NCBI GenBank assembly: GCA_024405875.1
Contig: JAKSOA010000022.1
Location: forward strand, 1 to 34,323
Source: Paludibacteraceae bacterium
GTDB lineage: Bacteria > Bacteroidota > Bacteroidia > Bacteroidales > Paludibacteraceae
DNA: 34,323 nucleotides
Direction: 5' to 3'
The notes below the pieces were generated by a model. The model searched no databases, was not told the origin of the DNA, and saw only the letters and a program-made list of their open reading frames with translations. Each line of letters begins with the position of its first letter. Within the stretch, counting starts at the first letter, position 1. Position numbers and translations under genes: made by a program. This document shows positions 3,542 through 28,206 of the stretch, one piece after another.

Positions 3542-3556
3542 TAATTAACAATTAAT
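3529..3556 (+). repeat. 7-bp tandem repeat (AATTAAY)4 across the ygiQ stop codon
   Basis: Four units AATTAAT, AATTAAT, AATTAAC, AATTAAT run without gaps through the last codons and the TAA of ygiQ. The same unit recurs at the end of ligA (25158-25206), and a variant (AATTAGT) occurs before dapA (24528-24562). Confidence 0.85.
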
Positions 3557-3558
3557 AT

Positions 3559-3599
3559 GTGAGGCTCCGCCTCACCGAATTAAGGTGCAAGCCCTTAAT
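3559..3599 (+). terminator. Two adjacent hairpins after ygiQ (possible transcription end)
   Basis: GTGAGGC (3559-3565) pairs with GCCTCAC (3569-3575) over a TCC loop. ATTAAGG (3579-3585) then pairs with CCTTAAT (3593-3599). There is no clear T-run, so terminator activity is a guess. The hairpins may instead be processing or stability elements. Confidence 0.4.
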
Positions 3600-3615
3600 C
3601 ACGAGCAAAGCGAGT

Positions 3616-3679
3616 AATAACCGAATAACCGAATCACCGAATAACCAAATCACCGAATAACCAAATCACCGAATAACCG
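3616..3679 (+). repeat. 8-bp tandem repeat, 8 units, ending one base before a start codon
   Basis: Eight contiguous octamers of pattern AAT(A/C)ACC(G/A), order A-A-C-A-C-A-C-A at the variable fourth base. The array ends at 3679 and the ATG of the next gene is at 3681. Octamers of the same family occur at 25132-25155 and 30661-30747. Confidence 0.9.
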
Positions 3680-3680
3680 A

Positions 3681-9396: not shown

Positions 9397-9570
9397 AATT
9401 TATAAAACAATACGAACACCATAACGCCGCCCGAAGTAGAATCACATACAAAACAAGGCACGAACAGTTAGCCTACGGAGTAGGCGTATTTTTGTGAGTC
9501 TCCGTAGTTTTGTGTGATTATACGAGGGATATACGGGCGTTCCCAAAGGTGTGAGTATGTTTTATAAATT
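9397..9570 (+). ncRNA. Repeated structured element, copy 1 (malQ-nrdJ gap)
   Basis: The segment folds into one long branched-free hairpin. Outer arms AATTTATAAAACAATAC (9397-9413) and GTATGTTTTATAAATT (9555-9570) pair with one bulge. Inside them come ACACC/GGTGT, AACGCC/GGCGTT, AATCACA/TGTGATT, CAAAAC/GTTTTG, CACGAA/TTTGTG (one G-U pair) and the apical hairpin GCCTAC-GGA-GTAGGC. About 140 nt of the core are closely similar to 28011-28177 read on the minus strand, while the outer arms and the apical stem differ in sequence but still pair. It ends 53 nt before nrdJ on the same strand. It may be a structured RNA or a palindromic mobile element. I do not recognise it as a named family. Confidence 0.75.
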
Positions 9571-9623
9571 ATAGAAGGTTTGCATAAGAAAACAACAATA
9601 TAACATTAAAATAAATAAAAACT

Positions 9624-12158
9624 ATGGAACAAAGAACTTACTCCTTTGATGAGGCAATGAAAGCCACCACGGAATATTTCCTTGGTGACGAACTTGCAGC
9701 CAAAGTCTGGATTAACAAGTATGCCTTGAAAGACTCTTTCGGGAACATATTTGAGCAGACACCTGCAGATATGCATCATCGTCTGGCATCAGAGATTGCC
9801 AGAATTGAAAACAAGTACCCTAACCCACTCACAGAGCAGCAACTCTTTGACCTGTTTGACCACTTTAAATATATAATACCTCAAGGTGGCCCTATGACAG
9901 GTATTGGCAACAACTATCAGATTGCCTCACTCTCAAACTGCTTTGTAATTGGATTTAATGAGGAATCAGACTCATACGGTGCTGTAATGAAGATTGATGA
10001 GGAGCAGGTTCAACTTATGAAACGTCGTGGCGGTGTAGGTCACGACCTATCTCACATACGCCCATACGGTTCTCCGGTAAAGAACTCAGCACTTACATCT
10101 ACAGGTATTGTTCCGTTTATGGAGCGTTACTCAAACTCAACACGTGAGGTGGCACAGGACGGACGTCGTGGTGCTCTAATGCTTAGCGTCTCTATCAAGC
10201 ACCCTGATTCAGAGTCATTTATTGACGCTAAGATGACAGAGGGCAAGGTTACAGGCGCAAATGTTTCTGTCAAAATCCACGATGACTTTATGAAGGCTGT
10301 CATTGACGGGAAACCATACAAGCAGCAATACCCTATCAATGCTAAGAAACCACAGTTTGAGAAGGAGATTAACGCAACGGAACTTTGGAAGAAGATTGTT
10401 CATAATGCTTGGAAATCAGCAGAGCCGGGAGTACTCTTCTGGGATACAATTACACGTGAGTCAGTTCCTGACTGCTATGCAGACCTTGGTTACCGTACCG
10501 TTTCAACAAACCCTTGCGGAGAGATTCCACTATGTCCGTATGACAGTTGCCGCCTTATAGCACTTAACCTCTACAGTTATGTTGAGAACCCATTCACTCC
10601 AAACGCAAAGTTCAACTTTGAACTATTCAAGACACACGCCGCTCTTGCTCAGCGCATAATGGATGACATTATTGACCTTGAGATGGAGAAGATTGATATG
10701 ATTCTCGCAAAAATCAACTCAGACCCTGAATCAGAGTCAATTAAGCAGACAGAGCGTGAACTTTGGGAGAAAATCAAGTCAAAAACAATCAAGGGTCGTC
10801 GTACAGGTGTGGGCATTACCGCTGAAGGTGATATGATTGCCGCCCTAAACCTACGCTATGGAACCCCAGAGGCTACAGATTTCTCAGAACAAATTCAAAA
10901 AAATCTTGCGATAGCCTGCTACGGCTCATCTGTTAATATGGCTAAGGAGCGTGGCGCGTTTGAGATTTATGACACTGAGCGTGAGGCTAAGAACCCATTC
11001 ATAAACCGTCTGAAAGAGGCTGACCCAGGACTCTATGAGGAGATGAAGAAGTATGGACGCCGTAACATAGCCTGTCTTACAATTGCTCCTACAGGCACCA
11101 CAAGCCTTATGTCTCAGACAACATCAGGTATAGAGCCAGTGTTCCGTCCTGTATATAAACGCCGTAGAAAAGTGAATCCTAATGACATTCAGGCTCACGT
11201 TGATTTTGTTGACCCCGATGGAAACTCTTGGGAGGAGTTCATAGTGTTCCACCACAAGTTTGTAACCTGGATGGAGGCTAACGGATACCCTACCGCAAAA
11301 AAATACTCTCAGGAGGAACTTGATGAGATGGTTGCTAAGTCACCATACTTCAAGGCTACCGCAAATGATGTTGACTGGCTTGAGAAGGTAAGAATGCAGG
11401 GAAGAATACAGAAATGGGTTGACCACTCAATAAGCGTCACCATCAACCTGCCTTCAGATGTCTCTGAGGAACTTGTAAACGAGCTCTACATTGAGGCTTG
11501 GAAATGCGGATGTAAGGGCTGTACTGTATATCGTGACGGCTCACGCACAGGCGTTCTTGTTGACAGTAACAAGAAAGAGGAGTCAAAACCTTGCAACTGC
11601 TATCCTGAAATAACTCCAAAGCGTCCTAAAGAGTTGGATTGTGACGTTGTCCGTTTCCAAAACAACAAAGATAAGTGGATTGCCTTTGTAGGTCTTTTGA
11701 ATGGTAAACCATACGAAATATTCACCGGTCTTGTAGATGATGAGGACGGACTTATGCTTCCAAAATCAGTTGAGAAGGGAAAAATCATAAGAAACGTACA
11801 CGAAGACACTGGCGTTAAGACCTATGACTTCCAATTTACCAACAAATACGGTTACAAGATTACAATTGAGGGTCTGTCACACAAATTCAACCCTGAATTC
11901 TGGAACTATGCAAAACTGATTTCAGGTGTGCTACGTTATGGTATGCCTATTGACCAGATTGTAAAACTTGTTGGTAGTCTGCAACTTAACAATGAGTCAA
12001 TCAACAACTGGAAGATGGGTGTTGAGCGCGCTCTTAAGAAATATATCCCTGATGGCACAGAGTCAGGTCAGAAATGTCCTCACTGCGGTCAGCCACTCAC
12101 ATTCACAGAGGGCTGTATGAAGTGCAATAACTGCGGATATTCAAGATGCGGTGGATGA
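9624..12158 (+). CDS. nrdJ: Adenosylcobalamin-dependent ribonucleotide reductase (class II)
   Basis: NrdJ reduces ribonucleotides to deoxyribonucleotides using coenzyme B12 and needs no oxygen. The 844-residue protein has the class II core: SLSNC with Cys106 (first redox Cys), NPCGE at 296-300 (Asn296, thiyl-radical Cys298, Glu300) and Cys309 (second redox Cys, 11 residues after Cys298 as in the Thermotoga enzyme). The C-terminal tail carries CPHCG, CMKCNNCG and CGG (residues 818-844), the Cys-rich swinging arm that re-reduces the active site. The loop KRRGGVGHDLSHIRP is also typical. No cobalamin riboswitch is visible upstream; instead the repeated structured element lies there. The gene is convergent with the ABC-F gene, 27 nt apart. 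The nrdJ assignment is secure. Confidence 0.95.
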   Translation: MEQRTYSFDEAMKATTEYFLGDELAAKVWINKYALKDSFGNIFEQTPADMHHRLASEIARIENKYPNPLTEQQLFDLFDHFKYIIPQGGPMTGIGNNYQIASLSNCFVIGFNEESDSYGAVMKIDEEQVQLMKRRGGVGHDLSHIRPYGSPVKNSALTSTGIVPFMERYSNSTREVAQDGRRGALMLSVSIKHPDSESFIDAKMTEGKVTGANVSVKIHDDFMKAVIDGKPYKQQYPINAKKPQFEKEINATELWKKIVHNAWKSAEPGVLFWDTITRESVPDCYADLGYRTVSTNPCGEIPLCPYDSCRLIALNLYSYVENPFTPNAKFNFELFKTHAALAQRIMDDIIDLEMEKIDMILAKINSDPESESIKQTERELWEKIKSKTIKGRRTGVGITAEGDMIAALNLRYGTPEATDFSEQIQKNLAIACYGSSVNMAKERGAFEIYDTEREAKNPFINRLKEADPGLYEEMKKYGRRNIACLTIAPTGTTSLMSQTTSGIEPVFRPVYKRRRKVNPNDIQAHVDFVDPDGNSWEEFIVFHHKFVTWMEANGYPTAKKYSQEELDEMVAKSPYFKATANDVDWLEKVRMQGRIQKWVDHSISVTINLPSDVSEELVNELYIEAWKCGCKGCTVYRDGSRTGVLVDSNKKEESKPCNCYPEITPKRPKELDCDVVRFQNNKDKWIAFVGLLNGKPYEIFTGLVDDEDGLMLPKSVEKGKIIRNVHEDTGVKTYDFQFTNKYGYKITIEGLSHKFNPEFWNYAKLISGVLRYGMPIDQIVKLVGSLQLNNESINNWKMGVERALKKYIPDGTESGQKCPHCGQPLTFTEGCMKCNNCGYSRCGG

Positions 12159-12171
12159 AAACAGTGAAAAG

Positions 12172-12199
12172 TTAACTTTTATTTTTTAACTTTTAACTA
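12172..12199. repeat. 28-bp TTAACTTT-type repeat between nrdJ and the ABC-F gene
   Basis: The 28 bases from 12172 to 12199 are identical to 18315-18342, and a diverged relative lies at 29707-29742. They are built from TTAACTTT units around a T-run. The stop codon of the ABC-F gene (12186-12188, minus) lies inside. AAAAGTTAA at 12167-12175 can pair with TTAACTTTT (12186-12194), so a convergent terminator role is possible. Confidence 0.7.
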
Positions 12200-14108
12200 G
12201 ATACATCCATTCTGTTTCTAAGGCTTCAATCTCTTTTTTGAGGGTGGCATATTGAGTAAAGATGGCGTTGTCAAAATTTGATGACGCCATTTTCTCTTCC
12301 AAAGCCTTAATCTCAGCCTCCTTATCAGAAATCTTTTTCTCTATCTCAGCAACCGCCTTGTCGGCACGCTGCTGTCTGCGTTGCTGCTCCTTACGCTCCT
12401 CGTATGAGAGTTGAGGCTCTTTTTTGACATCGGGGTTACTCTTTTGTGGTGACTGTATAGGCTTTTGAAGAGTTTTATTTCTCTCCAACTCCTGAAGATT
12501 GGCAATTTTCTTATCTTGAAGGAAATCATAGATGCCGCCTATGTGAGGAACTACCTTCCCACCACCAAACTCATATACCATAGATACCAGACCATCAAGA
12601 AACTCACGGTCGTGGGAGACAATTATGGCTGTGCCGTCAAACTCCTTAATAGCCTGTTTCAGAACATCTTTACTCATCATATCAAGGTGATTCGTAGGCT
12701 CGTCAAGAATGAGCAGATTCACCGGCTCAAGTAGCAGTTTTATCATTGCGAGCCTTGAACGCTCACCACCAGATAGCACCTTCACCTTCTTGTCTGACGC
12801 CTCGCCACCAAACATAAAGGCACCCAATATATCTCGTATCTTTGTTCTGATATCACCTACGGCAACATTATCAATGGTCTCAAACACAGTCTGAGTCTCA
12901 TCAAGCAACGATGCCTGGTTCTGGGCGAAGTAACCAATCTTAACATTATGCCCTATTTTTAGTTCTCCTGTATGCTCCAACTCCCCCATTATACATTTGA
13001 CAAGAGTTGACTTACCCTCACCGTTTTTACCCACGAAGGCTACCTTCTGACCTCTCTCAATTGTCAGTTCCACTCCGTCAAACACCTTATGACTGCCAAA
13101 ACTCTTACCAACACCCTCCATTATAACCGGATATGAACCGGAACGTGGTGCAGGCGGGAACTTCAAACGCAGAGCACTGTTATCCTCCTCATCTATCTCA
13201 ATACGCTCAATTTTCTCCAAAGCCTTTATTCTGGACTGAACCTGAACAGATTTTGTGGCTTTGTAACGGAAACGTTCAATAAACTCCTCCGTATCCTTAA
13301 TCTCCTTCTGCTGGTTAAGATAGGCACGCATCTGTTGCTCACGGCGTTCTTTACGCAGTTCCACATACTTGCTGTAGTTTGCTTTATAGTCATAAATCTT
13401 ACCCAGACATATCTCTATGGTGCGGTTTGTGGCGGCATCAAGGAAAGCACGGTCGTGGGAGACAAGCAAAACGGCGCCAGAATAGTTTGCGATAAAGTTT
13501 TCAAGCCACCCTATTGACTCAATGTCAAGATGGTTTGTAGGCTCGTCAAGCAACAAAAGTGACGGATGTTGCAGCAGAATCTTGGCAAGTTCTATTCTCA
13601 TACGCCAGCCACCGCTGAACTCAGATGAGGGACGACTGAAGTCTGAACGCAGGAAACCAAGACCCATAAGAGTCTTCTCCGCAGCCGCTGTCTTATCCTG
13701 CCCGCCCATAATGGCAAGACGTTCATTCAAAATGCTTATATCATCAATAAGTTTCTGATAACTCTCAGTCTCATAATCCTCCCGCTCACATAGTTCCTGA
13801 TTCTTACGCTCCAACTCCGCCTCAATCTCATTAATATGACTGAACGCCTTCATAACCTCGTCAATAACCGTTGTGTCATCGGCAGGAATCATTGTCTGCG
13901 GTAAATATCCTATGGTATATCCTGACGGTATGTTCACTCTCCCCGATGTAGGTGTTTGCAGACCCGCTATAATCTTGAGCATTGTGCTCTTACCTGCACC
14001 GTTCTTACCGGCAAGGGCTATACGGTCTTTGTCATTAACCACGTATGAGACTTTGTCAAACAAAGCACGGTCACTGAATATTACTGATAAATTCTCTACT
14101 GAAATCAT
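12186..14108 (-). CDS. ABC-F family ATPase
   Basis: ABC-F proteins are soluble twin-ATPase proteins that act on ribosomes; they have no membrane domain. The start at 14108 (MISVENLSV, 640 residues) is preferred because an upstream extension would run through the promoter. Walker A motifs are GKNGAGKST (34-42) and GKNGEGKST. Signatures are SGGWRMRIELAK and LSGGERSRLAMIK, and Walker B/Asp loops are LLLLDEPTNHLD and LLILDEPTNHLD. The linker between the cassettes is charged and helical (about residues 235-300), as in the P-site tRNA interaction motif. The last ~100 residues are a Lys/Glu-rich coiled coil, resembling YdiF/Uup. The gene appears to be transcribed as a nearly leaderless mRNA. Housekeeping ABC-F is more likely than antibiotic resistance, but the sequence alone cannot decide. 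Confidence 0.93.
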   Translation of the reverse strand: MISVENLSVIFSDRALFDKVSYVVNDKDRIALAGKNGAGKSTMLKIIAGLQTPTSGRVNIPSGYTIGYLPQTMIPADDTTVIDEVMKAFSHINEIEAELERKNQELCEREDYETESYQKLIDDISILNERLAIMGGQDKTAAAEKTLMGLGFLRSDFSRPSSEFSGGWRMRIELAKILLQHPSLLLLDEPTNHLDIESIGWLENFIANYSGAVLLVSHDRAFLDAATNRTIEICLGKIYDYKANYSKYVELRKERREQQMRAYLNQQKEIKDTEEFIERFRYKATKSVQVQSRIKALEKIERIEIDEEDNSALRLKFPPAPRSGSYPVIMEGVGKSFGSHKVFDGVELTIERGQKVAFVGKNGEGKSTLVKCIMGELEHTGELKIGHNVKIGYFAQNQASLLDETQTVFETIDNVAVGDIRTKIRDILGAFMFGGEASDKKVKVLSGGERSRLAMIKLLLEPVNLLILDEPTNHLDMMSKDVLKQAIKEFDGTAIIVSHDREFLDGLVSMVYEFGGGKVVPHIGGIYDFLQDKKIANLQELERNKTLQKPIQSPQKSNPDVKKEPQLSYEERKEQQRRQQRADKAVAEIEKKISDKEAEIKALEEKMASSNFDNAIFTQYATLKKEIEALETEWMYLVKS

Positions 14109-14116
14109 AAACGCTG

Positions 14117-14147
14117 CAAAGTTAGTGCAAGCCGAGAGCAAAACAAA
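14117..14147 (-). promoter_or_regulatory. Bacteroidota promoter of the ABC-F gene
   Basis: On the minus strand TTTG (14144-14147), a 19-nt spacer and TAACTTTG (14117-14124) fit the -33/-7 consensus. The ATG at 14108 lies 8 nt after the -7 box, so the mRNA would be leaderless or nearly so. The same GTA/GCA-CTAACTTTGCA core occurs before pyrK. Confidence 0.75.
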
Positions 14148-14212
14148 ATTTATTTTTGTGTTGCCGAGGGGTTTCAGGCGTTCCTTTCGGTTTTATATGT
14201 TCTAATTTAGTA

Positions 14213-14238
14213 TTTGTACTGAATTATTTTTATATTTG
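14213..14238 (+). promoter_or_regulatory. Probable promoter of the AddB-like gene
   Basis: TATATTTG (14231-14238) fits the -7 consensus and ends four bases before the ATG at 14243, which implies a leaderless mRNA. A TTTG lies at 14213-14216 but with a 14-nt spacer, shorter than the usual 19-21, so the -33 box is uncertain. Confidence 0.6.
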
Positions 14239-14242
14239 CAAT

Positions 14243-17047
14243 ATGTTAAAATCACTTGCAAAACACTTCATAACGCAGGATATCAGCAACTACTGCTTTG
14301 TGTTCCCAAACCGCCGTGCCGGACTCTTTTTCAGGGAGTACTTGAAAGAGGTGGCTACGAAAACATTCATAACGCCTGCAATTACCACGATTGAGGATAT
14401 TTTCCAGCTGTACAGCAAACTAAAAAGCGCTGACCAACTTACACTTATCTTCAATCTGTACACAGCATATACAAATGTTATGAGTGCAAACGGAAAAACG
14501 GCAGAGAATTTTGAAGAGTTCATTCCGTTTGGACAGACACTGATTAGTGATTTTAATGATATTGACAATTACCTTATAGATACTGCCAAACTGCTGAGGA
14601 ATATTGATGAGCTACAACAGATGGATTCATCAGATGAATATTTGAATGATGAGCAGATTAAAGTGCTTAAAGAACTCTTCAACTATTCAGAGAAGGAGCA
14701 TATACACAAGTTTAAATCCACTTGGAATCTGCTTCTACCTATATATCAGGAATTTAAGAAAATTTTAAGCGAGCAGGGACTGGCATATCCAGGAATGCTG
14801 TGCCGCTCTGTTATTGAAGAGAGCAAGGGTGACATTAACACTGACTTTGACAAAATTGTATTTGTAGGGTTCAACGCTCTTGACAATGTTGAGAAAGCGC
14901 TGTTCAAGTCATTAGGAACAAAGGCCGATTTTTATTGGGACTATAATATCAAACCATATAATGAAGACCCGGATAATCTTGCCAACTTTTTCAAAGATGA
15001 AAATCTAAGACGTTTTAACAGCAAAGAGAAGGTTGATTATGAACCGTTACCGCAAACCACTCATTTTTACAACATAGTAACATCTTCTATGACCGCTCAA
15101 ACTATTGAGGCTCAGAAGATTATTAGAAGATTAAATGCAAATTCCACCGATACGGCCATAGTCCTACTTGATGAGAATATGCTGCTTCCTATGTTAATGG
15201 CGTTGCCACTGCAAAAAGATGACGCCGGCAGAATTAACGTGACAATGGGATATCCGATATCACATACAACGGTGGTTGAGTTCATAGAGAACTATTTTCT
15301 TTTGCAGAACAGTGCTGTTGAGACATCGGGGGAGGTGGAATTTTATCATAAACACGTACTCTCAATATTATCTCACTCATATATTCAGCACCTATGCACT
15401 TCGGCGGATAATATTACAGATGTGATTGACAACATTCTAAGAAATAACCAGATTATGGTTCCGGCAAGTGCCATATCTGAAAAATTGTCTTCAATAAATA
15501 TTGTGTCAGAGGTATTCAAGAAAGTTAAAGTTGATGAGTTACTGCAACAGACAACCAATATATTGAGACTTGTTACCCCTGACAATGATTATGAGAAGAA
15601 GTGTATTGAGCAAGTGCAACTATCTGTTGGAACAATAAACCAACTGTTTGATGATTTTCTTATTGCAAGTCAACTCTCCCCGATACGTATGTTGCAGATT
15701 ATCAAGCAATCCATATCAGGAGTGAGCGTATCATTTAAGGGAGAGCCTCTTAGCGGACTACAGATTATGGGAACTCTTGAAACCAGATGCCTCTCTTTCA
15801 AGAACATACTGTTCTTGTCATTCAATGAGGGCATATTCCCCAAGAGCGGCAAAAGCAACTCAATTATTCCATACAATATAAGAAAAAGTTACGGATTACC
15901 TACAACAGAGCATCAAGATGCCGTTTACGCATATAACTTCTACCGCTTGGTGGCACACGCTGAGAATGTATATCTTATATCAGACAGCCGTACTGACAAT
16001 ATGCGCAGCGGAGAGCCAAGCCGTTATTTGAATCAGTTGAAATACATATACAACGCCAACATAACAAACAAAGTTATTACAGGTGATATTAAGATTGAAA
16101 AAGAGAACTCTGAGATTCAGAAACCTGCCGATTTTGCTCAAAAACTACTGAACGGCACTATAAAATTATCACCAAGCAGCCTTAACACATACTGTAGTTG
16201 CCCATTCCGTTTCTACCTGCAACAATATTTAGGTATATCAGAGAGTGATGAGGTTACAGAGATTATGGAAGAGAGTGACTTTGGCAGCGTATTTCATAAA
16301 GCGATGGAACTTCTCTACACTGAATTGAAGAGAGATTTTGGCGGCAGTGAGTTTACAGCGGAAATGCTAAGGACTCTGAAATCAACTCCGCATAAAATTG
16401 ACGATGCTATTACAAGAGCCTTCAATGAGCTCTATTTCCATAATAATACCGAACCATATAAGGAACTTAATGGCGTAAATTACCTTAACGCACAGGTAAT
16501 AAAGCACTATATAAACTCAACTCTTGATGAAGACATAAGAATTGCGCCATTTTCATTAAAACAGTGCGAATATAAATGCGAAGCACAATACTCAAATAAA
16601 AATAATACACTATTCGCAAATAAATCAATAACAATTAAAGGTTCTATAGACCGCATAGATGCTTTTACCCACCCCGGTGACAAAAAAGTACATCTGCGTC
16701 TTCTTGACTATAAGACAGGTAAGGTTAAATGTGTGTTCAAACCTGACAAGCCAAGAAATGATGATGGTGCGGCGGCAAGACAGTTGTTTCTCTACAGATA
16801 TATGATAGAGAATGACAAAAATTTTAAAGAGCCGTTTAATGCTGTGGATTTAAGGATTTATGGTGTAGGAGCACTCGGCAAGCCAGGAGGTGAGACTGAT
16901 AAAGACCTGACAGATGAAAAATATAATGAGTTCCTCCCTATTCTTGACAATATTTTGTCAGAGATGATTAATATGGAGGAACCCATTAAAAAGGATTATA
17001 GCAAATGCAAATACTGTGCACTTACAGATATTTGCAAAAGGATATGA
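14243..17047 (+). CDS. AddB-like PD-(D/E)XK nuclease with 4Fe-4S cysteines
   Basis: This 934-residue protein resembles the AddB/RecB-type nuclease subunits that process double-strand breaks. The start at 14243 follows a -7 box directly; the longer reading frame would begin inside the promoter. The N-terminal ~600 residues are helicase-like but lack a Walker A (FVFPNRRAGLFFREYL at that place), so this part is probably structural. The nuclease domain starts with SPSSLNTYCSCPFRFYLQQ. The catalytic motif is D803/D806, then LLDYKTG with Asp822 and Lys824. Cys653, Cys922, Cys925 and Cys931 match the AddB iron-sulfur ligands, with the last three at the same spacing (3 and 6). No AddA/UvrD helicase gene is adjacent in the window. 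The stop codon directly abuts the stop of the convergent TPR gene. Confidence 0.88.
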   Translation: MLKSLAKHFITQDISNYCFVFPNRRAGLFFREYLKEVATKTFITPAITTIEDIFQLYSKLKSADQLTLIFNLYTAYTNVMSANGKTAENFEEFIPFGQTLISDFNDIDNYLIDTAKLLRNIDELQQMDSSDEYLNDEQIKVLKELFNYSEKEHIHKFKSTWNLLLPIYQEFKKILSEQGLAYPGMLCRSVIEESKGDINTDFDKIVFVGFNALDNVEKALFKSLGTKADFYWDYNIKPYNEDPDNLANFFKDENLRRFNSKEKVDYEPLPQTTHFYNIVTSSMTAQTIEAQKIIRRLNANSTDTAIVLLDENMLLPMLMALPLQKDDAGRINVTMGYPISHTTVVEFIENYFLLQNSAVETSGEVEFYHKHVLSILSHSYIQHLCTSADNITDVIDNILRNNQIMVPASAISEKLSSINIVSEVFKKVKVDELLQQTTNILRLVTPDNDYEKKCIEQVQLSVGTINQLFDDFLIASQLSPIRMLQIIKQSISGVSVSFKGEPLSGLQIMGTLETRCLSFKNILFLSFNEGIFPKSGKSNSIIPYNIRKSYGLPTTEHQDAVYAYNFYRLVAHAENVYLISDSRTDNMRSGEPSRYLNQLKYIYNANITNKVITGDIKIEKENSEIQKPADFAQKLLNGTIKLSPSSLNTYCSCPFRFYLQQYLGISESDEVTEIMEESDFGSVFHKAMELLYTELKRDFGGSEFTAEMLRTLKSTPHKIDDAITRAFNELYFHNNTEPYKELNGVNYLNAQVIKHYINSTLDEDIRIAPFSLKQCEYKCEAQYSNKNNTLFANKSITIKGSIDRIDAFTHPGDKKVHLRLLDYKTGKVKCVFKPDKPRNDDGAAARQLFLYRYMIENDKNFKEPFNAVDLRIYGVGALGKPGGETDKDLTDEKYNEFLPILDNILSEMINMEEPIKKDYSKCKYCALTDICKRI

Positions 17048-18295: not shown

Positions 18296-18314
18296 AATTT
18301 TGAACTTTAAACTT

Positions 18315-18342
18315 TTAACTTTTATTTTTTAACTTTTAACTA
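18315..18342. repeat. Second copy of the 28-bp TTAACTTT-type repeat
   Basis: Identical over 28 bases to 12172-12199. It lies between the gyrA stop (18344-18346) and the TPR gene. The flank 18302-18314 continues with related AACTTTAAAC sequence. Confidence 0.8.
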
Positions 18343-18343
18343 T

Positions 18344-20878
18344 TCACTCTTCTGTTACTCCCTCAATGTTATCAAACTCTTTCTTCGCCTCCTCAAGTTC
18401 TTCTGATACCTCATCTTCAAGTATCTCTTCCTCTTGGTAGCGGTCAACGGCACATATTGAGGCAATCTCATCCTCACGCTTCTCAAGGTTTATAAAGCGT
18501 ACACCCTGTGTGGCACGGCCTTGAACCCTCAATGACGCCACCTCAAATCTGATGGCTATACCTGATTTGTTAATAATCATAAGGTCATTCTCATCATTGA
18601 CGTTATGAATCGCCACAAGTTTACCTGTCTTCTCTGTAACATTGATAGTTTTCACACCTTTACCGCCACGATTGGTTATACGGTACTCATCAAGGTCAGA
18701 ACGTTTGCCGTAACCCTTCTCTGAAACAACAAGAATATTATCTGTTGTATCCTGAGGAACAGTAACCATTCCTACAACCTCATCATCGCCACCGTCAAGT
18801 GTCATACCACGCACACCGGTTGACATTCTACCCATCTCTCTAACCTTACTCTCATTAAAGCGTATGGCACGTCCGTTACGGTTTGCAATAATAACCTCAC
18901 TATTGCCATCGGTGAGTTTTACTTGTATAACCTTGTCGTCCTCACGTATGATAATTGCGTTCACACCATTCTGACGCGGGCGTGAGTATGCTTCAAGAAG
19001 TGTTTTCTTTACAATACCGTTCTTGGTACAGAACAACAGGCAGTGGCTCATATTAAATTCAGTGTCTTGCAACCCTTTAATCTTTATGAACGCTGTTATC
19101 TTGTCTTCTTTCTCAATGCTCAACATATTCTGAATGGCACGCCCCTTTGAGTTCTTTGTACCCTCTGGAATGTCATAAACCTTTAGCCAATAGCAACGTC
19201 CGCTCTGAGTGAAGAATAGCAGATAACTGTGCATTGACGCCTGATAAATATGCTCAATGAAATCCTCATCACGGCTGTCACTACCCTTTGAGCCCATACC
19301 ACCACGATTCTGGGCACGGTACTCTGTAAGCGGAGTACGCTTTATGTAGCCAAGATGTGAGATTGTTATAACCATCTCATCATCAGCATAGAAATCCTCT
19401 GGATTGAACTCTTCTGAGGCATATACAATCTCTGAGCGACGCTCATCGCCGTATTTATCTTTGACTGCTATAAGTTCCTCTTTTATAATCTGATATCTGC
19501 GACTCTCATTGGCAATTATATCCTTGTAATCCTCAATTGTAATAAGTAATTGGTCATATTCGGCTCTAAGTTCATCTTGTTTGAGACCTGTGAGTTGACC
19601 AAGTTTCATTTCAACAACAGCCTGTGCCTGAATCTCACTAAGTGAGAAACGCTGCATAAGAGCCTCTTTTGCCGCTGAAGGATTAGCGGAAGATTTAATA
19701 AGGTGAACAACCTCATCTATGTTGTCTGACGCTATTATAAGACCTTGCAGAATGTGGGCTCTCGCCTCCGCCTTTTCAAGCAGGAACTGTGTACGACGCA
19801 GAATAACCTCCAAACGGTGTTCCACAAAGTTCACAACAAGGTCACGCAGTGTGAGCAGTTTAGGTCTGCCCTTCACAAGCGCTATGTTGTTTATGCTGAA
19901 TGATGATTGCAGTGCGGTCTCCTTATACAGTTTGTTAAGCACTACGCTTGCGTTGGCGTCACGCTTAATCTCTATGACCAGACGCATACCCTCTGAACTT
20001 GTCTCATCGGTCACGCTTGATATGCCATCAATCTTCTTATCCTTGACAAGTTCGTGAATGTGCTTTTGCAGTTCCGCCTTATTAACCATATAAGGTATCT
20101 CTGTTACAATAAGGCGGTCGTGGTCTTTGTCTGACTCTATCTCAACCTTACTGCGTATAACCACCCTGCCACGTCCTGTAAGATAGGCGTCCTTAATGCC
20201 CTGATAACCGTAGATTATACCGCCTGTAGGAAAATCAGGAGCCTTAATGATGCGTATAAGTTCCTCATCCTCAATCTCTTTATTATCAATGTAGGCGACT
20301 ATTGCATCAACAGTGTCAGAGAGGTTGTGAGGAGCCATATTGGTAGCCATACCAACGGCTATACCTGTGGCACCGTTAATCAGAAGGTTAGGAATGGCGC
20401 AAGGAAGCACAGTCGGCTCTTTCAGGGTCTCATCAAAGTTACTAACCATATCAACAGTGTTCTTGTCAATATCATTAATCATCTCATTTGAGATTTTCTG
20501 AAGCCTTGCCTCAGTATAACGCATTGCCGCCGGTGAGTCACCGTCAACAGAACCGAAATTACCCTGACCCTCAACAAGCGGATAACGCAGTGACCACGGC
20601 TGTGCAAGATGCACAAGAGTACCGTATATGGATGAGTCACCGTGAGGGTGATATTTACCCATAACCTCACCCACTATTCTGGCACACTTCTTGGTTGGTT
20701 TGTCGTATGTGTTGCTGAGTTCATTCATTCCAAACAGCACACGCCTCTGAACAGGTTTCAAACCGTCTCTAACATCAGGCAACGCACGTGACACAATAAC
20801 TGACATAGAGTAATCTATATACGCCGTGCGCATCTCCTCCTCAATGTCCACTTTTACAATTCTTTCGTCTTCAATCAT
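18344..20878 (-). CDS. gyrA: DNA gyrase subunit A
   Basis: GyrA is the DNA-cleaving and rejoining subunit of gyrase. The 844-residue protein has the typical opening (residues 19-50: [28 protein letters not shown]) and catalytic Tyr121 ([10 protein letters not shown]). Its quinolone region reads [17 protein letters not shown]. The C-terminal beta-pinwheel begins around residue 500 and has a GyrA-box-like QNRGGMG. The tail is acidic ([21 protein letters not shown]). The residue equivalent to E. coli Ser83 is Ser82. The residue equivalent to E. coli Asp87 is Gly86 (codon 20621-20623). ParC is unlikely given the length and the GyrA box. The promoter is shared in a divergent region with clpC. Confidence 0.95.
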
Positions 20879-20953
20879 CGTTGAAATTATATTAGTTTAT
20901 ACTACTCACAAAAGGTGAACAGAGAATCCAATCACCTTTATCTCTAAAACATA

Positions 20954-20961
20954 CAAAGATA
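20954..20961 (-). promoter_or_regulatory. -7 box (TATCTTTG) of gyrA
   Basis: TATCTTTG on the minus strand fits TAnnTTTG and lies 75 nt before the gyrA ATG. No exact TTTG is seen at -33. The divergent clpC promoter must lie between here and 21060; AATATTTG at 21027-21034 (+) is the nearest candidate but departs from consensus. Confidence 0.6.
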
Positions 20962-21073
20962 GTAATTTTAATTGAAAATTGGAAATTGAAAGTTGATAGT
21001 TTTTCAAGTTTTTCAAGTTTGGCACAATATTTGCAGAAAATATATTAATTTTACACTCAATAAATACCTTAAT

Positions 21074-23590
21074 ATGGAAAAAGAGTATTCAAATGACGTA
21101 CAGAATATAATAAGATATTCTAAAGAGGAGGCGATGAGGCTTGGGAATGACTATGTAGGACCGGAGCACCTTATGCTTGCCATAATACGTTCCGGAGAGG
21201 CGACTCCCGCCTATAAGATACTGAGTGACAATATGCACATTGATATGAACGGGCTCAAAAAGAAGATTGAGCAGCGCATTAAGACCAACAAAGACACTTA
21301 CGGGCAGAAACTCTCCACGCTCTCATCAACTGAGCGTATAATGAAATTCTCACACCTTGAGGCACGTAACAGTGACACCATTGAATCACAACACATTCTG
21401 CTTGCCATTCTCAAGGAGAACGCAAACCTTGCCACTGAGTTGCTCTCACCAGAGGGCGCCACGTATGATAAACTGCGTGCCATAATATTCCCTACTGAAG
21501 CGGCGTCAATTGAGAAAGCCACGGTAATAAGTGACATCTATGACTCAAAAGACCAGAATGACAATGGCTCAAATGATGATGATGACGATGATGAGGATTT
21601 CACCAAGACTGTCAAAAAATCAGGAAAAAACTCAAAGACACCTGCGTTGGACCACTTTGGCACAGATATTACCAAAGCGGCGTCAGAGGGCAAACTTGAC
21701 CCTACCGTAGGCAGGGAGAAGGAGATTGAGCGCATAGCCCAGATTCTAAGCCGTCGTAAGAAGAATAACCCGGTGCTTATAGGTGAGCCTGGCGTTGGCA
21801 AGTCAGCCATCGTGGAAGGTCTTGCAACTCAAATAGTTGAGTATAAGGCACCGCACATTCTTTGCAACAAGAGAATAATATCACTTGATATGGCTTCAAT
21901 GGTTGCGGGCACAAAGTACCGCGGACAGTTTGAGGAGCGTCTGAAGGCTGTAATCAAGGAACTTGAGGATAACCCCGACATCATTCTCTTCATTGATGAA
22001 ATCCACACCATAATAGGAGCGGGAGGCACAGCAGGGTCACTTGACGCCGCCAATATGATGAAACCTGCGCTCTCAAGAGGCAGGATTCAGTGTATAGGCG
22101 CCACCACCCTTGATGAGTACCACAAGAGCATTGAGAAGGACGGAGCCCTTGAGCGTCGCTTCCAGAAAGTCATTGTAAAGCCTACATCGGAAGATGAGAC
22201 ACTGACAATTTTGCAGAACATTAAGGAGCGTTATGAGGCTCACCATAATGTAAGATATACCCAAGAGGCACTTGAGGCTTGTGTGAAACTCGCTTCCAGA
22301 TACCTTACAGACCGCCAGTTCCCCGACAAGGCTATTGACGCAATGGACGAGGCGGGAGCCAAGGCTCACATATCCAACACCTCTGTACCTCAGAACATTA
22401 AGGACATTGAGAAAAAGATTACGGAACTTGACGCCCTAAAACTTGAGGCGGTACACAATGAGGATTTCTACCTTGCCAATAAATACAAGGATGAGTCTGC
22501 CGAATTGTCAGTCCAACTGCAGAAGGCACAAAAGGAGTGGAGCAAACAAGATGAGGAGAACGCAGTAACAGTTGACGCCAATGACATAGCACGTGTTGTG
22601 TCACTCATATCAGGTGTGCCTGTTCAGAAAGTTGAGGAGACTGAGTTCACCAAACTACGTAAGATGAACGGCATACTCAAGAGCCAGGTAATAGGTCAGG
22701 ACCGTGCCATAGACTCAATCTGCCGCAGCATTCTACGTAACCGTGTAGGTCTCAAAGACCCTAACCGCCCTATCGGCTCTTTCATTTTCTTAGGACCGAC
22801 AGGTGTGGGGAAAACCTACCTCACCAAGATGCTGAGTGAATATATGTTCAACTCAAAAGATGCCATCATACGCATTGATATGAGTGAGTATATGGAGAAA
22901 TTCAGCGTCTCTAGGCTTATAGGAGCGCCTCCGGGCTACGTAGGCTATGAAGAAGGCGGCCAACTTACAGAGAAAGTAAGGCGTAACCCCTACTCCATAA
23001 TTCTCTTTGATGAGATTGAGAAGGCTCACCCCGATGTCTTCAATCTGCTGTTGCAGGTGCTTGATGAGGGTCGCCTTACAGACAGTGACGGACGCAGCGT
23101 TGATTTCAAAAACACAATAATTGTAATGACCTCAAACGCCGGCACACGCCAACTCAAGGAGTTCGGGCAAGGCGTAGGTTTTGCCACATCGGCACGTACG
23201 CTTGACACCAAATACAGTGATGGCATTATTAAGAAGGCGTTGCAAAAGACATTCTCTCCTGAGTTTCTGAACCGTATAGATGAGATTGTAATCTTTGACT
23301 CTCTGCAAAAAGAGTCAATTTCAAAGATTATTGACATTGAACTTGGCAAGGTTCTCAGCCGTATAGCAAACCTCGGCATCAAGATTGAGATTACAGATGC
23401 CGCAAAAGAGCAGATGATTAAGGAGGGTTATGACATACAATATGGCGCACGCCCTATGAAACGCACCATACAGAAGTATGTTGAGGATAATGTGGCTGAA
23501 CTTATAGTCAACTCTGACAATGCAGACTTTCACGGTCGCACAATCAAGATTGATAGTGTTGATGGTGCTATAAAAGCACTGTTATCTTAA
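21074..23590 (+). CDS. clpC: ATP-dependent Clp protease ATPase subunit ClpC
   Basis: ClpC unfolds proteins and feeds them to ClpP. The start at 21074 ([10 protein letters not shown], 838 residues) is preferred over the in-frame ATG at 20993, which lies in promoter-like DNA. The domains are a double Clp-N repeat (about 1-150), an acidic linker with a run of Asp (about 168-185), and AAA-1 with Walker A GEPGVGKS (237-244) and Walker [11 protein letters not shown] middle region with UVR-like helices (about 435-500) follows, then AAA-2 with Walker A GPTGVGKT (574-581) and [10 protein letters not shown]. Val701-Gly702-Phe703 (GQGVGFAT) is the loop that docks on ClpP, which separates it from ClpB. 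No clpP is in the window. It is convergent with dapA, 22 nt apart. Confidence 0.93.
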
Positions 23591-23612
23591 GGCAAGCAGT
23601 CTGCCGTTGTCA

Positions 23613-24491
23613 TTACAATTCCTTCAGAACCTGTGCTATCTTCTGGTATGTGGTAATTGTAGTCGGGACAAGCGGTAAGCGTAACTTGTTCTCAATCATA
23701 CCCATAGCGTTAAGCATACTCTTAACTCCGGCTGGGTTGCCGTCAACAAAGAGCAGGCTGAAGAGTTCCGTAAACTTGTGGTGAATGCCGCGGGCGTTCT
23801 CATAATCACCGGCAAGAGCAAGGCGTACCATTCTGCTAAACTCCTTTGGGAAGGCGTTTCCAATGACAGATATAACGCCAGAAGCACCTTGAGTTATAAG
23901 AGGGAATGCAATGCCGTCATCACCTGATATTACAAGGAAATCCTTGGGCTTGTTCTTCATAATGTACTCTATCTGCTCCATTTTACCTGAAGCCTCTTTT
24001 ATGGCGATTATGTTTTTGAAGTCACGGGCAAGACGCAGTGTTGTCTCACCTGTCATATTAGTACCTGTTCTGCCTGGTACGTTATATAGGACAATAGGTA
24101 CCGGTGATGCCTCTGCAATAGCCTTATAGTGTTGGTATATACCCTCTTGTGATGGTTTGTTGTAGTAAGGGACTACAGAGAGTATGGCATCTACGCCTTT
24201 GAAATTACCTGTTTTAAGTTGCTCTACAATAGCCATTGTATTATTGCCTCCAAGACCAAGGACAACGGGTATTTTCCCGCCTATCTTGCCTATGACCAAC
24301 TCCATAATCTTCTGTTTCTCATCTTCTGAGAGAGTCGGGGTCTCAGCTGTTGTGCCAAGCACAACCATATAATCAATGTCATTTTTAATCTGATAGTCAA
24401 CAAGTGACGCAAGTGCGTCATAGTCAACAGAACCATCAGTTTTAAAAGGGGTTATAAGGGCAACCCCCATTCCTTGTAAATTAACCATCAC
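23613..24491 (-). CDS. dapA: 4-hydroxy-tetrahydrodipicolinate synthase
   Basis: DapA condenses pyruvate with aspartate semialdehyde, the first step of the diaminopimelate/lysine branch. The 292-residue product has GTTAE at 46-50, Tyr136 (LYNVPGRTG) with Arg141, and Schiff-base Lys165 (IAIKEASG). Numbers drop by one if the second Met (24488) is the start; the sequence does not decide between the two adjacent ATGs. It is the last gene of a minus-strand run ligA, DUF6913 gene, dapA, but has its own TAnnTTTG box, so it may also be transcribed alone. Confidence 0.95.
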   Translation of the reverse strand: MMVNLQGMGVALITPFKTDGSVDYDALASLVDYQIKNDIDYMVVLGTTAETPTLSEDEKQKIMELVIGKIGGKIPVVLGLGGNNTMAIVEQLKTGNFKGVDAILSVVPYYNKPSQEGIYQHYKAIAEASPVPIVLYNVPGRTGTNMTGETTLRLARDFKNIIAIKEASGKMEQIEYIMKNKPKDFLVISGDDGIAFPLITQGASGVISVIGNAFPKEFSRMVRLALAGDYENARGIHHKFTELFSLLFVDGNPAGVKSMLNAMGMIENKLRLPLVPTTITTYQKIAQVLKEL

Positions 24492-24513
24492 AAATATGCT
24501 TTTTTGCGAGCCA

Positions 24514-24521
24514 CAAAGTTA
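24514..24521 (-). promoter_or_regulatory. -7 box (TAACTTTG) of dapA
   Basis: TAACTTTG on the minus strand fits the consensus and lies 22 nt before the dapA ATG. Nineteen bases upstream is ATTG, a partial -33 box. The upstream DNA is the 7-bp repeat array 24528-24562, so changes in array length would shift what lies at -33. Confidence 0.6.
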
Positions 24522-24527
24522 ATAAAT

Positions 24528-24562
24528 AATTAGTAATTAGCAATTAGTAATTAGTAATTAAC
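24528..24562. repeat. 7-bp tandem repeat (AATTAGY), 5 units, before dapA
   Basis: Units on the plus strand are AATTAGT, AATTAGC, AATTAGT, AATTAGT, AATTAAC without gaps. The array lies between the DUF6913 gene stop (24565) and the dapA -7 box. Confidence 0.85.
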
Positions 24563-24564
24563 TT

Positions 24565-25122
24565 TCAATTCTTATTAATTACTTCCAAATAGTTAATTAT
24601 CTGCTTATAGACACCTAAAGGGAATGAGGTGTCATCTGATGGCTTGAAAAGAAAATTATAGCGGGCACCCTGCTCGTCACGCTGTACGGCAATCTTAAAT
24701 TTTGCGTGAGAGTATTGTGCAAGATATTCCAATGGCCAGCAGGTTACAGGACTGAGGTTTATGAGGGCGTCAGCATCGTCCATCATAAAATCAGTATATG
24801 TACGTTCATCGGGGCTATATGTCCATTTTGAGAAGTTCTCATTTGTCACCGATGTCATATTAACACGCTTTGTCTCATTAAGGGAATTATCAACAAAGAA
24901 TGTCAGTTCACATTTTATGCCACGCAGCCTCAAATCCTCAAGTATAGCATACATATCAGCATAATGCTTTTTTGCATCAATATCTAAAGGCTCATTCAAA
25001 TAATAAAGAAGCGTCAGACTCTTAATCTTTGACAAATTTAGAAACTTATGCTCCTCTATCTGTGCTATTTTCTGCAAATTCCGCTTTGCGAGAAATACTT
25101 TTATGTTATCTATTATTTCCAT
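24565..25122 (-). CDS. DUF6913-like protein (conserved Bacteroidota unknown)
   Basis: This 185-residue protein has no signal peptide or membrane segment. Features include a basic helical N-terminus (FLAKRNLQKIAQIEEHKFLN), then an alternating alpha/beta core (LTLLYYLNEPLD, KCELTFFVDNS, DDADALINLSPVTCWPLEYL, FKIAVQRDEQGARYNFLFKP). I assign it to DUF6913 from memory of its sequence and of its position between ligA and dapA, which recurs in Bacteroidales. The function is unknown. Conserved linkage to ligA and dapA may just reflect operon heritage. It ends in TGA followed by a 7-bp repeat array. Confidence 0.75.
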   Translation of the reverse strand: MEIIDNIKVFLAKRNLQKIAQIEEHKFLNLSKIKSLTLLYYLNEPLDIDAKKHYADMYAILEDLRLRGIKCELTFFVDNSLNETKRVNMTSVTNENFSKWTYSPDERTYTDFMMDDADALINLSPVTCWPLEYLAQYSHAKFKIAVQRDEQGARYNFLFKPSDDTSFPLGVYKQIINYLEVINKN

Positions 25123-25131
25123 AATTATAAT

Positions 25132-25155
25132 GGTTATTCGGTGATGTGGTGATGC
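25132..25155. repeat. 8-bp tandem repeat, 3 units, before the DUF6913 gene
   Basis: GGTTATTC, GGTGATGT and GGTGATGC on the plus strand, the complement of the octamers at 3616-3679. The array ends 10 bp from the ATG of the minus-strand DUF6913 gene at 25122. Confidence 0.8.
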
Positions 25156-25157
25156 GA

Positions 25158-27193
<2,036 letters not shown>

Positions 27194-27243
27194 AATACCT
27201 TATTTTATGACTATGAATATTCTTTGTTACAAGCGTTATCTTG

Positions 27244-27251
27244 CAAACTTA
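27244..27251 (-). promoter_or_regulatory. -7 box (TAAGTTTG) of ligA
   Basis: TAAGTTTG on the minus strand fits TAnnTTTG. It lies 50 nt before the GTG start at 27193, which supports transcription of the full-length frame that contains the amber codon. No TTTG is seen at -33. Confidence 0.55.
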
Positions 27252-27275
27252 CTTAAAAAAATTGAAAAATAGTGT

Positions 27276-27283
27276 TAATTTTG
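27276..27283 (+). promoter_or_regulatory. -7 box (TAATTTTG) of trmD
   Basis: TAATTTTG fits the consensus and lies 24 nt before the trmD ATG. The -33 region has only a partial match. The promoter is divergent from that of ligA, about 25 bp away. Confidence 0.6.
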
Positions 27284-27307
27284 CGGTAAAGATTTTAACA
27301 AACAGAT

Positions 27308-27985
27308 ATGCGTATAGATATATTGACAGTGCTACCTGAACTGCTTGAAAGCAACTTTGCCTACTCAATAATAAAGCGCGCCCAAGATAAGGGGCTGGCG
27401 GAGATACACCTTCACAACCTGCGTGACTACTCCACAGATTTAAGACACCGCCGTGTTGATGACTATCCGTTTGGCGGAGAGGCTGGTATGGTTATGCAGA
27501 TAGAGCCTGTTGACCGTGCCATTGAGCATCTGAAGGCGGAACGTGAGTATGATGAGATTATATACACCTCCCCTGATGGTGAGATGTTCACCCAAAAGGT
27601 GGCGAATGAGTTCTCTATGATGAACAATATAATTATTCTCTGCGGTCACTACAAAGGCGTGGACCAGAGAATAAGGGAGCATCTGATAACAAGGGAGATT
27701 TCAGTTGGTGATTTTGTTCTGACAGGTGGCGAATTGGCTGCCTCAATAATAGCAGACGCAACCATTCGCATAATACCTGGCGTTATTTCTGATGAACAGT
27801 CAGCCTTGTCAGACTGTTTCCAGGATGACCTGCTTTCTGCTCCTGTATATACCCGCCCTGCTGATTACAAAGGGTGGAAAGTTCCTGAGATTCTACTCTC
27901 AGGTAATGACCGCCTTATAGCGGAATGGCGTCTGGAGCAATCACTTGAACGCACTCGCAAATTAAGACCTGATTTACTAAAATAA
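27308..27985 (+). CDS. trmD: tRNA (guanine37-N1)-methyltransferase
   Basis: TrmD methylates G37 next to the anticodon in tRNAs reading CNN codons and so prevents frameshifting. The 225-residue protein has the SPOUT-fold hallmarks. They are [13 protein letters not shown] (about residues 51-63), the SAM-binding trefoil-knot segments [11 protein letters not shown] (about 111-121) and [13 protein letters not shown] (about 131-143), and the C-terminal helical domain ending in RPDLLK. Length is normal. It is the only gene in its transcript here. In many bacteria it sits with rpsP-rimM-rplS, but here its neighbours are ligA (divergent) and a structured element. Confidence 0.95.
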
Positions 27986-28010
27986 TTTTTATAGAGTGGT
28001 TTTATTTTCC

Positions 28011-28177
28011 GTGTTATAACCTACTCACACACAACCAACGCCCTATATCCCTCGCAAAATCACACAAAACTACGGAGACTCACAAAAATACGCCACCTAT
28101 GGTGGCTAACTGTTCGTGCCTTGTTTTGTACGTGATTTTGCTTCACGGGGCGTTATGGTGTTCTTAGGTCATAACAC
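28011..28177 (-). ncRNA. Repeated structured element, copy 2 (trmD side)
   Basis: Read on the minus strand this is the second copy of the element at 9397-9570. Outer arms GTGTTATGACCTA and TAGGTTATAACAC pair with a single G-U. The core stems AACGCCC/GGGCGTT, AATCAC/GTGATT, CAAAAC/GTTTTG and CACGAA/TTTGTG are conserved, and the apical hairpin is GCCACC-ATA-GGTGGC. Conserved single-stranded or mixed stretches include AAGGCACGAACAGTTAGCC and GTATTTTTGTGAGTCTCCG. It lies in the convergent gap after trmD (+) and beyond the terminator of the DUF3078 gene (-), so it seems to be outside both transcripts. Confidence 0.75.
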
Positions 28178-28206
28178 TAAAAAACTACTCTATAAAAAGC
28201 CTAATC

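What the first reader, a model, noticed from the sequence alone, without database searches (positions are those of the whole stretch)
9397..28177. A repeated 167-174 nt structured element with base-pair covariation, copies at 9397-9570 (+) and 28011-28177 (-)
The two copies share about 140 nt of closely similar core, including AAGGCACGAACAGTTAGCC and a GTGAGTCTCCGTAGTTTTG stretch. The apical hairpin differs (GCCTAC-GGA-GTAGGC against GCCACC-ATA-GGTGGC), yet both forms pair fully. The outer arms also differ completely between copies (AATTTATAAAAC against GTGTTATGACCTA) but each is self-complementary. G-U pairs in copy 2's outer arm and in CACGAA/TTTGTG would be mismatches on the opposite strand, so the stated orientation is favoured if it acts as RNA. 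Two copies in 34 kb beside unrelated genes (nrdJ; trmD and DUF3078) argue against a simple gene-specific riboswitch. I know of no named family with this sequence.
Basis: seen in the sequence. Interest (0 to 1): 0.85.

Follow-up and report, generated by a model that had tools for sequence, protein, structure and literature searches.

The report
Mobile hairpin repeats with private stems
The two copies belong to an unlisted family of short non-coding hairpin repeats scattered through a few related bacteria; the middle is shared between copies while the base of each stem is nearly unique to a copy and still pairs with itself, which makes the family a good natural test of how hairpins spread and stay paired.

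Summary
Both window copies fold as one long hairpin far beyond shuffled controls (z -7.27 and -8.34), with no Rfam family on them. They are two of 26 copies in 5 of 16 genomes of the genus, 9 in the window's own genome. Outside the genus I found only one partial match, judged chance, in samples of 200 family and 393 order genomes.

The fold is real: 18 of 30 core pairs show two-sided changes, 99.1% of cells pair, 0 of 500 shuffles match. The stated strand folds better in 25 of 26 copies. Copies lie beside unrelated genes in both orientations, so a gene-specific riboswitch is unlikely.

The striking part is decoupling. Copies with near-identical cores can carry unrelated outer arms, and the reverse, yet each copy's two arms pair (own mean -29.8, crosswise -10.3 kcal/mol).

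Best reading: a REPIN/MITE-like folded mobile repeat whose core is swapped between copies and whose stem is kept paired by fold-back (template-switch) copying. The mobilising enzyme is unknown; transcription is untested.

The parts
9397..9570 (+). Copy 1 of the hairpin repeat, whole element (outermost predicted pair 9397-9570)
   Evidence: z -7.27 against 200 shuffles
9417..9545 (+). Copy 1, conserved core matched by models R1 and R2
9397..9408 (+). Copy 1, left private outer arm AATTTATAAAAC
   Evidence: own-arm pairing ranks first of 26
9559..9570 (+). Copy 1, right private outer arm GTTTTATAAATT
9471..9485 (+). Copy 1, apical hairpin GCCTAC-GGA-GTAGGC; followed by a T-run, terminator-like (1 found in the region, 0.3 expected from shuffles)
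28011..28177 (-).
   Evidence: z -8.34 against 200 shuffles
27986..28198 (-). Copy 2 with the further stem predicted when more flank is folded
28033..28160 (-). Copy 2, conserved core matched by models R1 and R2
28165..28177 (-). Copy 2, 5' private outer arm GTGTTATGACCTA
   Evidence: own-arm pairing ranks first of 26
28011..28023 (-). Copy 2, 3' private outer arm TAGGTTATAACAC
28092..28106 (-). Copy 2, apical hairpin GCCACC-ATA-GGTGGC

Best explanation
A family of short (about 170-190 nt) non-coding, dispersed, mobile hairpin repeats, in kind like REPINs or MITEs. SHOWN: many copies per genome at mostly different sites; either orientation to genes; one conserved fold with a preferred strand; cores that reassort with arms; outer arms that differ between most copies but pair within each copy; other repeat modules nested in some copies. 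INFERRED: the unit is recognised or maintained as a folded single strand (ssDNA during replication or transposition, or an RNA) and reaches new intergenic sites by an unidentified enzyme. Cores are then exchanged between copies by recombination or gene conversion. The private arms arise and stay complementary because a hairpin is a hot spot for fold-back (template-switch) synthesis: a nascent strand folds at the stem and copies the other arm, which mends mismatches in bulk and can extend the stem into flanking DNA. My confidence is about 0.8 for 'dispersed mobile folded repeat', 0.65 for core/arm exchange and 0.4 for fold-back copying as the source of the arms; the score is for the whole chain.
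For: 26 copies in 5 of 16 genus genomes. G002, G003 and G010 lack the element at the nrdJ and trmD sites. Only one site was found shared between species, L011 in G000 and L026 in G003, and there the orientation is opposite. Both neighbours in the element's sense in 10 of 26, both opposite in 11 of 26. Two-sided changes at 18 of 30 core pairs, 99.1% of cells paired, 0 of 500 shuffles. Sense strand better in 25 of 26. Own arms pair at -29.8 kcal/mol on average against -10.3 crosswise; 0 of 10,000 permutations reach it. Core 0.92-0.97 with arms at background (L075/L079, L022/L024, L023/L026) and arms about 0.8 with cores 0.66-0.78 (L023/L024, L026/L022). Three copies in two genomes share one set of arms (L073, L079, L080), as expected if arms can move with the element. 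Published template-switch mutations create and mend hairpins (PMC8794818, abstract seen).
Against: No transposase was found: Y1 transposases in 0 of 5 carrier genomes, reverse transcriptase in 3 of 5 carriers and 2 of 11 non-carriers, none in the segments between arm pairs examined in G002; but carriers are 79-96% complete. No near-identical empty allele is held, so no insertion event was seen cleanly; orthologous sites hold other repeats or are too diverged. At L071 both arms look absent from the empty site in G002, which does not favour copying of one host flank. If fold-back copying dominated, the conserved bulges and G-U pairs of the core should have been corrected to perfect pairing, so selection on the core is also needed. 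The alignment behind one search was fitted with the model, which leans the counts towards the structure.
Confidence: 0.45

Rival explanations
1. An ordinary MITE: a non-autonomous DNA transposon with long, fast-diverging terminal inverted repeats, moved by a transposase not identified here or lost. The arms are transposase sites and co-vary because both ends must match.
For: Size, intergenic habit, copy number and inverted ends fit. Three copies in G002 and G010 share the same arms at different sites (L073, L079, L080).
Against: The ends are the most variable part and the middle the most conserved, the reverse of a usual MITE. No clear target-site duplication could be read by eye; for L020 the outermost flanks are inverted, not direct, repeats. 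No transposase partner found.
Confidence: 0.25
2. Insertion into pre-existing palindromes or terminator-like hairpins: the conserved core enters the loop of a host inverted repeat, so the private arms are host sequence.
For: At the trmD 3' end G002 and G010 carry a plain short hairpin (TAGGTTCTA..TAGAACCTA) where G000 carries the element with an extended stem. 15 of 26 copies have a stop codon within 25 nt of the outer window (no random expectation computed). A second repeat family sits at some of the same sites.
Against: At nrdJ G002 shows no comparable palindrome, and at L071 the terminator-like hairpin lies outside the element. Many arms are AT-rich and would close into loop-less palindromes, unlike terminators.
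Confidence: 0.15
3. A functional non-coding RNA or transcript-end element, with copies kept because the RNA (or its hairpin at gene ends) is useful; arms change by compensatory mutation.
For: Strong covariation, strand preference, conserved unpaired positions, frequent placement next to stop codons. In copy 1 the apical hairpin plus T-run looks like an intrinsic terminator.
Against: No orientation preference towards neighbours (10 sense, 11 antisense of 26). Cores identical over the trimmed length carry different arms (L016/L017), too fast for stepwise compensation. Apical hairpins of other copies differ and most were not scanned for a T-run. No expression data.
Confidence: 0.15

Closest known systems
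REPINs / REP sequences mobilised by RAYT (Y1) transposases (PMC3116915, passages seen; PMC3733652, abstract and outline seen)
   Same: Short extragenic units that fold as long hairpins in ssDNA or mRNA, many per genome, compensatory changes in the spacer stem, presumed mobile.
   Different: REPINs have conserved ends and a variable spacer and go with a RAYT; here the middle is conserved, the ends are variable, and no Y1 transposase is found in the five carriers.
MITEs and small enterobacterial repeats (ERIC/RU-1 127 bp, RU-2 168 bp; PMC2229807 and PMC2759123, start of abstract in the search listing)
   Same: Similar size, intergenic, no coding capacity, inverted-repeat architecture.
   Different: Private outer arms, exchangeable cores, no partner transposase found. 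No sequence comparison with ERIC or RU was made.
Palindromic candidate structured RNAs of the human microbiome, e.g. HMP2_4078, 109 bp, mostly Bacteroidetes (PMC8040213; outline, section 8)
   Same: Palindromic folded intergenic units, several in Bacteroidetes, most of them interpreted there as terminators.
   Different: Not compared by sequence: the supplementary list could not be opened.
Integron attC sites (recalled)
   Same: Recombination sites that work as folded single strands, with structure kept while sequence varies.
   Different: attC sites end cassettes in arrays near an integrase; these are isolated, with a long conserved core sequence. The integrase was not searched for.

Membership tests
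REPIN/REP with RAYT | RAYT-type Y1 transposase in the genome | tested here: not met
   PF01797: 0 of 5 carriers, 2 of 11 non-carriers; carriers 79-96% complete
REPIN/REP with RAYT | Two conserved end units in inverted order with a variable spacer | tested here: not met
   Core conserved, ends variable
REPIN/REP with RAYT | Long hairpin in single-stranded form, extragenic, multicopy | tested here: met
MITE | Terminal inverted repeats | tested here: met
   but not conserved between copies
MITE | Target-site duplication | tested here: inconclusive
   Read by eye only; AT-rich self-complementary flanks, no clean empty allele
MITE | Partner transposase with the same ends | tested here: inconclusive
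   Arm pairs up to 4 kb apart in 1.89 Mb of G002; the four ORFs scanned in Pfam gave no transposase
Known Rfam family | Match at gathering score | tested here: not met
   Window: tRNA only; 4 of 26 copies at permissive threshold, nothing on the element
Cis-regulatory riboswitch/leader | Constant position and sense orientation upstream of related genes | tested here: not met
Functional ncRNA | Conserved secondary structure with covariation | tested here: met
   can also arise by DNA template switching (PMC8794818)
Functional ncRNA | Discrete transcript | not testable with these tools
   No expression data

The most novel reading that the evidence does not exclude
These genomes carry a system of nestable folded repeat modules in which a shared hairpin core and a copy-specific base stem are separate, exchangeable parts. 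New base stems are written at a site by fold-back copying of one flank onto the other, so that insertion or later replication itself creates a private inverted repeat. A second, unrelated core family in the same genomes shows the same kind of private arms.
Probability: 0.3. Interest if true: 0.8.

Novelty: new variant of a known kind. Interest (0 to 1): 0.55.

Why it matters
Two-sided base changes are normally read as proof of a functional RNA. Here many of them come as wholesale arm differences between copies whose cores are nearly identical, which points to a DNA-level cause. If so, the family is a natural experiment on how hairpins are born, extended and kept paired by template switching, and a warning for covariation-based RNA discovery in repeats. 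It also shows mobile folded repeats with no RAYT-type transposase in sight.

Tried and rejected
Exact 18-19 nt core patterns: the single genome-contig hit (L007) and the three viral-contig hits (L008-L010) do not show the element's fold and are judged chance. Plasmid and phage collections: no match with the copy 1 core. blastn in 41 genomes found only the own genome, so covariance models were needed.

The weak G061 match (model positions 31-97 only) does not show the element's long hairpin when folded and was dropped as chance. In one search two extra rows were antisense matches of L020 and L022 and were not counted as copies. L015 was dropped from the first arm test (own arm best in 19 of 25). 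In one search all 26 were used, and the left-arm windows of L082 and L076 were moved outward after one search showed that an inserted module had displaced them; without that shift L082 ranked 4th and L076 1st.

Rejected or not supported: a Y1/RAYT-driven system; reverse transcriptase as a general cause (found in G000, G002, G012, not in G003 or G010, and also in G006 and G011); a gene-specific riboswitch; integron-like cassettes at the C18 pair (two copies 1606 bp apart, each upstream of an ORF6N/RhuM-type gene or its paralogue), because no third copy follows there and the other copies are isolated. An integrase was not searched for.

The empty sites in G002 did not decide between insertion into palindromes and fold-back copying, because intergenic DNA in this genus turns over too fast. 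In one search my pattern took a wrong 9.5-kb stretch of L128 as one of three seeds, so long rows in L128 and L029 are artefacts, and the output was cut; only short rows that show the second family's fold were used, and no total is claimed. Literature: six searches listed no paper that I recognised as describing this family; only listings were seen except for the papers named, and the library lacks most subscription papers.
Full report
OBSERVATION. Both elements are present as described. Copy 1 (9397-9570, +) and copy 2 (28011-28177, -) each fold into one long hairpin at -61.0 and -74.8 kcal/mol, far below shuffles (z -7.27 and -8.34; 0 of 200 as good in each). The predicted stem of copy 2 extends further, to 27986/28198. 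Rfam finds only a tRNA in the window.

COPIES. blastn with copy 1 found four good copies in the own genome and none in 40 relatives. A covariance model from those four (R1) found eight in the own genome. In 200 genomes of the family it matched G000, G003 and G010, plus one partial match in G061 that I judge chance. A second model from 17 copies (R2) found 26 matches in 5 of the 16 genomes of the genus: G000 9, G003 6, G002 5, G010 4, G012 2. In 393 genomes of the order only the own genome matched. Searches used stricter filters, and R1 had missed G002 and G012, so rarer or more diverged copies elsewhere are not excluded. The weakest of the 26 are L082 (24.9 bits) and L076 (21.9 bits, E 0.019); both were later seen to have paired arms.

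FOLD. On the 17-copy alignment A4 RNAalifold predicts 30 core pairs, 18 with two-sided changes. Pair counting on the 15 distinct rows gives 99.1% of cells paired against 79.1% in shuffles and at most 52.1% when slid; 81 cells change on both sides against 24.4; 0 of 500 shuffles reach any of the five measures. The alignment was fitted with R1 and the structure derived from it, so these numbers lean towards the structure. The helix that reads CAAAA/TTTTG in some copies and GTTTT/AAAAC in others is nevertheless plain. The sense strand is the more stable in 17 of 17 and 8 of 9 more. Conserved unpaired features include a two-nucleotide bulge and GGCRYGARC...GYGAGYC, which would allow tandem G-A pairs (my reading; it is not kept in every copy, e.g. 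L028). No long ORF lies in the element; short ORFs of 82-94 codons overlap some copies.

PLACES. Copies are intergenic, except that in L011 the upstream reading frame runs 54 nt into the core. Both neighbours are in the element's sense in 10 of 26, both opposite in 11 of 26, and 5 of 26 are otherwise (crude ORF calls). A stop codon lies within 25 nt of the tested outer window in 15 of 26, counting small overlaps; I computed no random expectation. Copy 2 lies between trmD and a DUF3078 gene. Neighbours of other copies include an N6 methylase, an amidohydrolase, a glycogen debranching enzyme, an esterase-like protein, a pyridine nucleotide-disulphide oxidoreductase and an ORF6N/RhuM gene.

MOBILITY. 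G002, G003 and G010 lack the element at the trmD and nrdJ sites. Among the copies whose flanks I could place, only one site is shared between species: L011 in G000 and L026 in G003 occupy the same intergenic region in opposite orientation, and G002 carries there a different hairpin repeat next to a remnant of this family's right arm. L015, L016 and L017 have identical trimmed cores, L017 on another contig. L023 and L025 are alike in flanks too and lie beside paralogous sequence, so they may be a plain duplication.

PRIVATE ARMS. The outer arms differ between most copies yet pair within each copy. Own-arm duplexes average -29.8 kcal/mol against -10.3 for arms taken from different copies. The own partner is best in 20 of 26 and among the best three in 26 of 26; of 10,000 permutations none reaches the own mean (best -16.5). 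The six copies not ranked first are beaten by copies with related arms. Not all arms are private: L023/L025, L014/L015/L016 and L073/L079/L080 share arms within their group.

DECOUPLING. Pairs with nearly the same core but arms at background include L075/L079 (0.97 core, 0.57 arms), L022/L024 (0.93, 0.59) and L023/L026 (0.92, 0.55). Pairs with similar arms but different cores include L023/L024 (0.66 core, 0.79 arms) and L026/L022 (0.78, 0.81) (median arm identity over 325 pairs 0.59, median core identity 0.66). L014 has the arms and lower stem of L016 with an apex like L012. So core and arms exchange, and the arms did not simply drift step by step with their cores.

NESTING AND OTHER FAMILIES. 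A further, interrupted copy in G002 (L145:4560-4900, not among the 26) has the arms of L075 but two inserted modules containing GCAGAAGCC...GGATTATGC. L082 and L076 carry the same kind of module, with paired arms beyond it. A second family with CCCTCCC motifs and often TATACC-type arms, seen in G000, G002 and G003, also has copy-specific arms that pair. G002 intergenic DNA is dense in repeats: the largest cluster of short repeated intervals has 291 members (a loose cluster that joins several families).

MECHANISM. The evidence shows a folded dispersed repeat that moves or has moved. How it moves is unknown: no Y1 transposase in the five carriers, a reverse transcriptase in three of five, and no transposase in the four ORFs scanned between or across arm pairs in G002; the carriers are 79-96% complete. 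For the arms, fold-back copying seems to me the simplest account: the hairpin holds the two flanks side by side, and a strand that folds back copies one onto the other, as published for template-switch mutations that create and maintain RNA hairpins (PMC8794818; abstract and outline). Insertion into palindromes and ordinary terminal-repeat evolution stay open, because no near-identical empty allele is held. Copy 1 also has a terminator-like apical hairpin, so a role in transcript ends is possible.

COMPARISON. REPINs are nearest in how it may work (PMC3116915, passages; PMC3733652, abstract and outline). Membership fails on the transposase and on conserved ends. MITE and ERIC/RU elements match in size and habit (listing only). 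No Rfam family applies to the copies scanned. Palindromic candidate RNAs in Bacteroidetes are in print (PMC8040213, section 8) but could not be compared by sequence.

VERDICT. Real, not in Rfam, and more unusual than first stated because of the copy-specific, exchangeable arms. A new variant of a known kind (mobile folded intergenic repeats); function as an RNA is unproven.

Noticed in passing
L046 (G003, just after trmD), L097:1991-2163, L128 about 12990-13130, L135:3896-4010, L137:1998-2106, L155:12253-12364, L175:13460-13627, L129:15151-15374, L029:7052-7202: A second hairpin repeat family (CCCTCCC motifs, often TATACC-type arms) in G000, G002 and G003, also with copy-specific outer arms that pair.
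   Followed up: partly
L128:13130-13163, L129:14734-14774, L085:6243-6300: Three composites in G002 in which a second-family hairpin is followed directly by a right-arm remnant of the present family.
   Followed up: partly
L145:4560-4900, L082, L076: A module with GCAGAAGC...GATTATGC inserted inside copies of the present family; two such modules in L145.
   Followed up: partly
G000 contig C18:911-2644 (L015, L016, L031): Two copies 1606 bp apart, each upstream of one of two paralogous ORFs, the first an ORF6N/RhuM protein; identity runs 237 nt rightwards from the core start but only 18 nt leftwards.
   Followed up: partly
L165 (L075), L037, L039, L172:14271 and 18218, L088:15400: Paralogous loci share a block with AAATTACCCCCCCCGAT...GGGGAGGGTAATTT, beside which different repeats stand in different paralogues.
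   Followed up: no
L083, L140, L103 (G002): Another abundant intergenic repeat with GGGGATATGCCCCAAT and GGAGCGAAGCGACAGAGAAC-type hairpins.
   Followed up: no
window 3541-3681: The site orthologous to copy L079 of G002 holds in the window a different insertion with simple CCGAATAA-type repeats.
   Followed up: no
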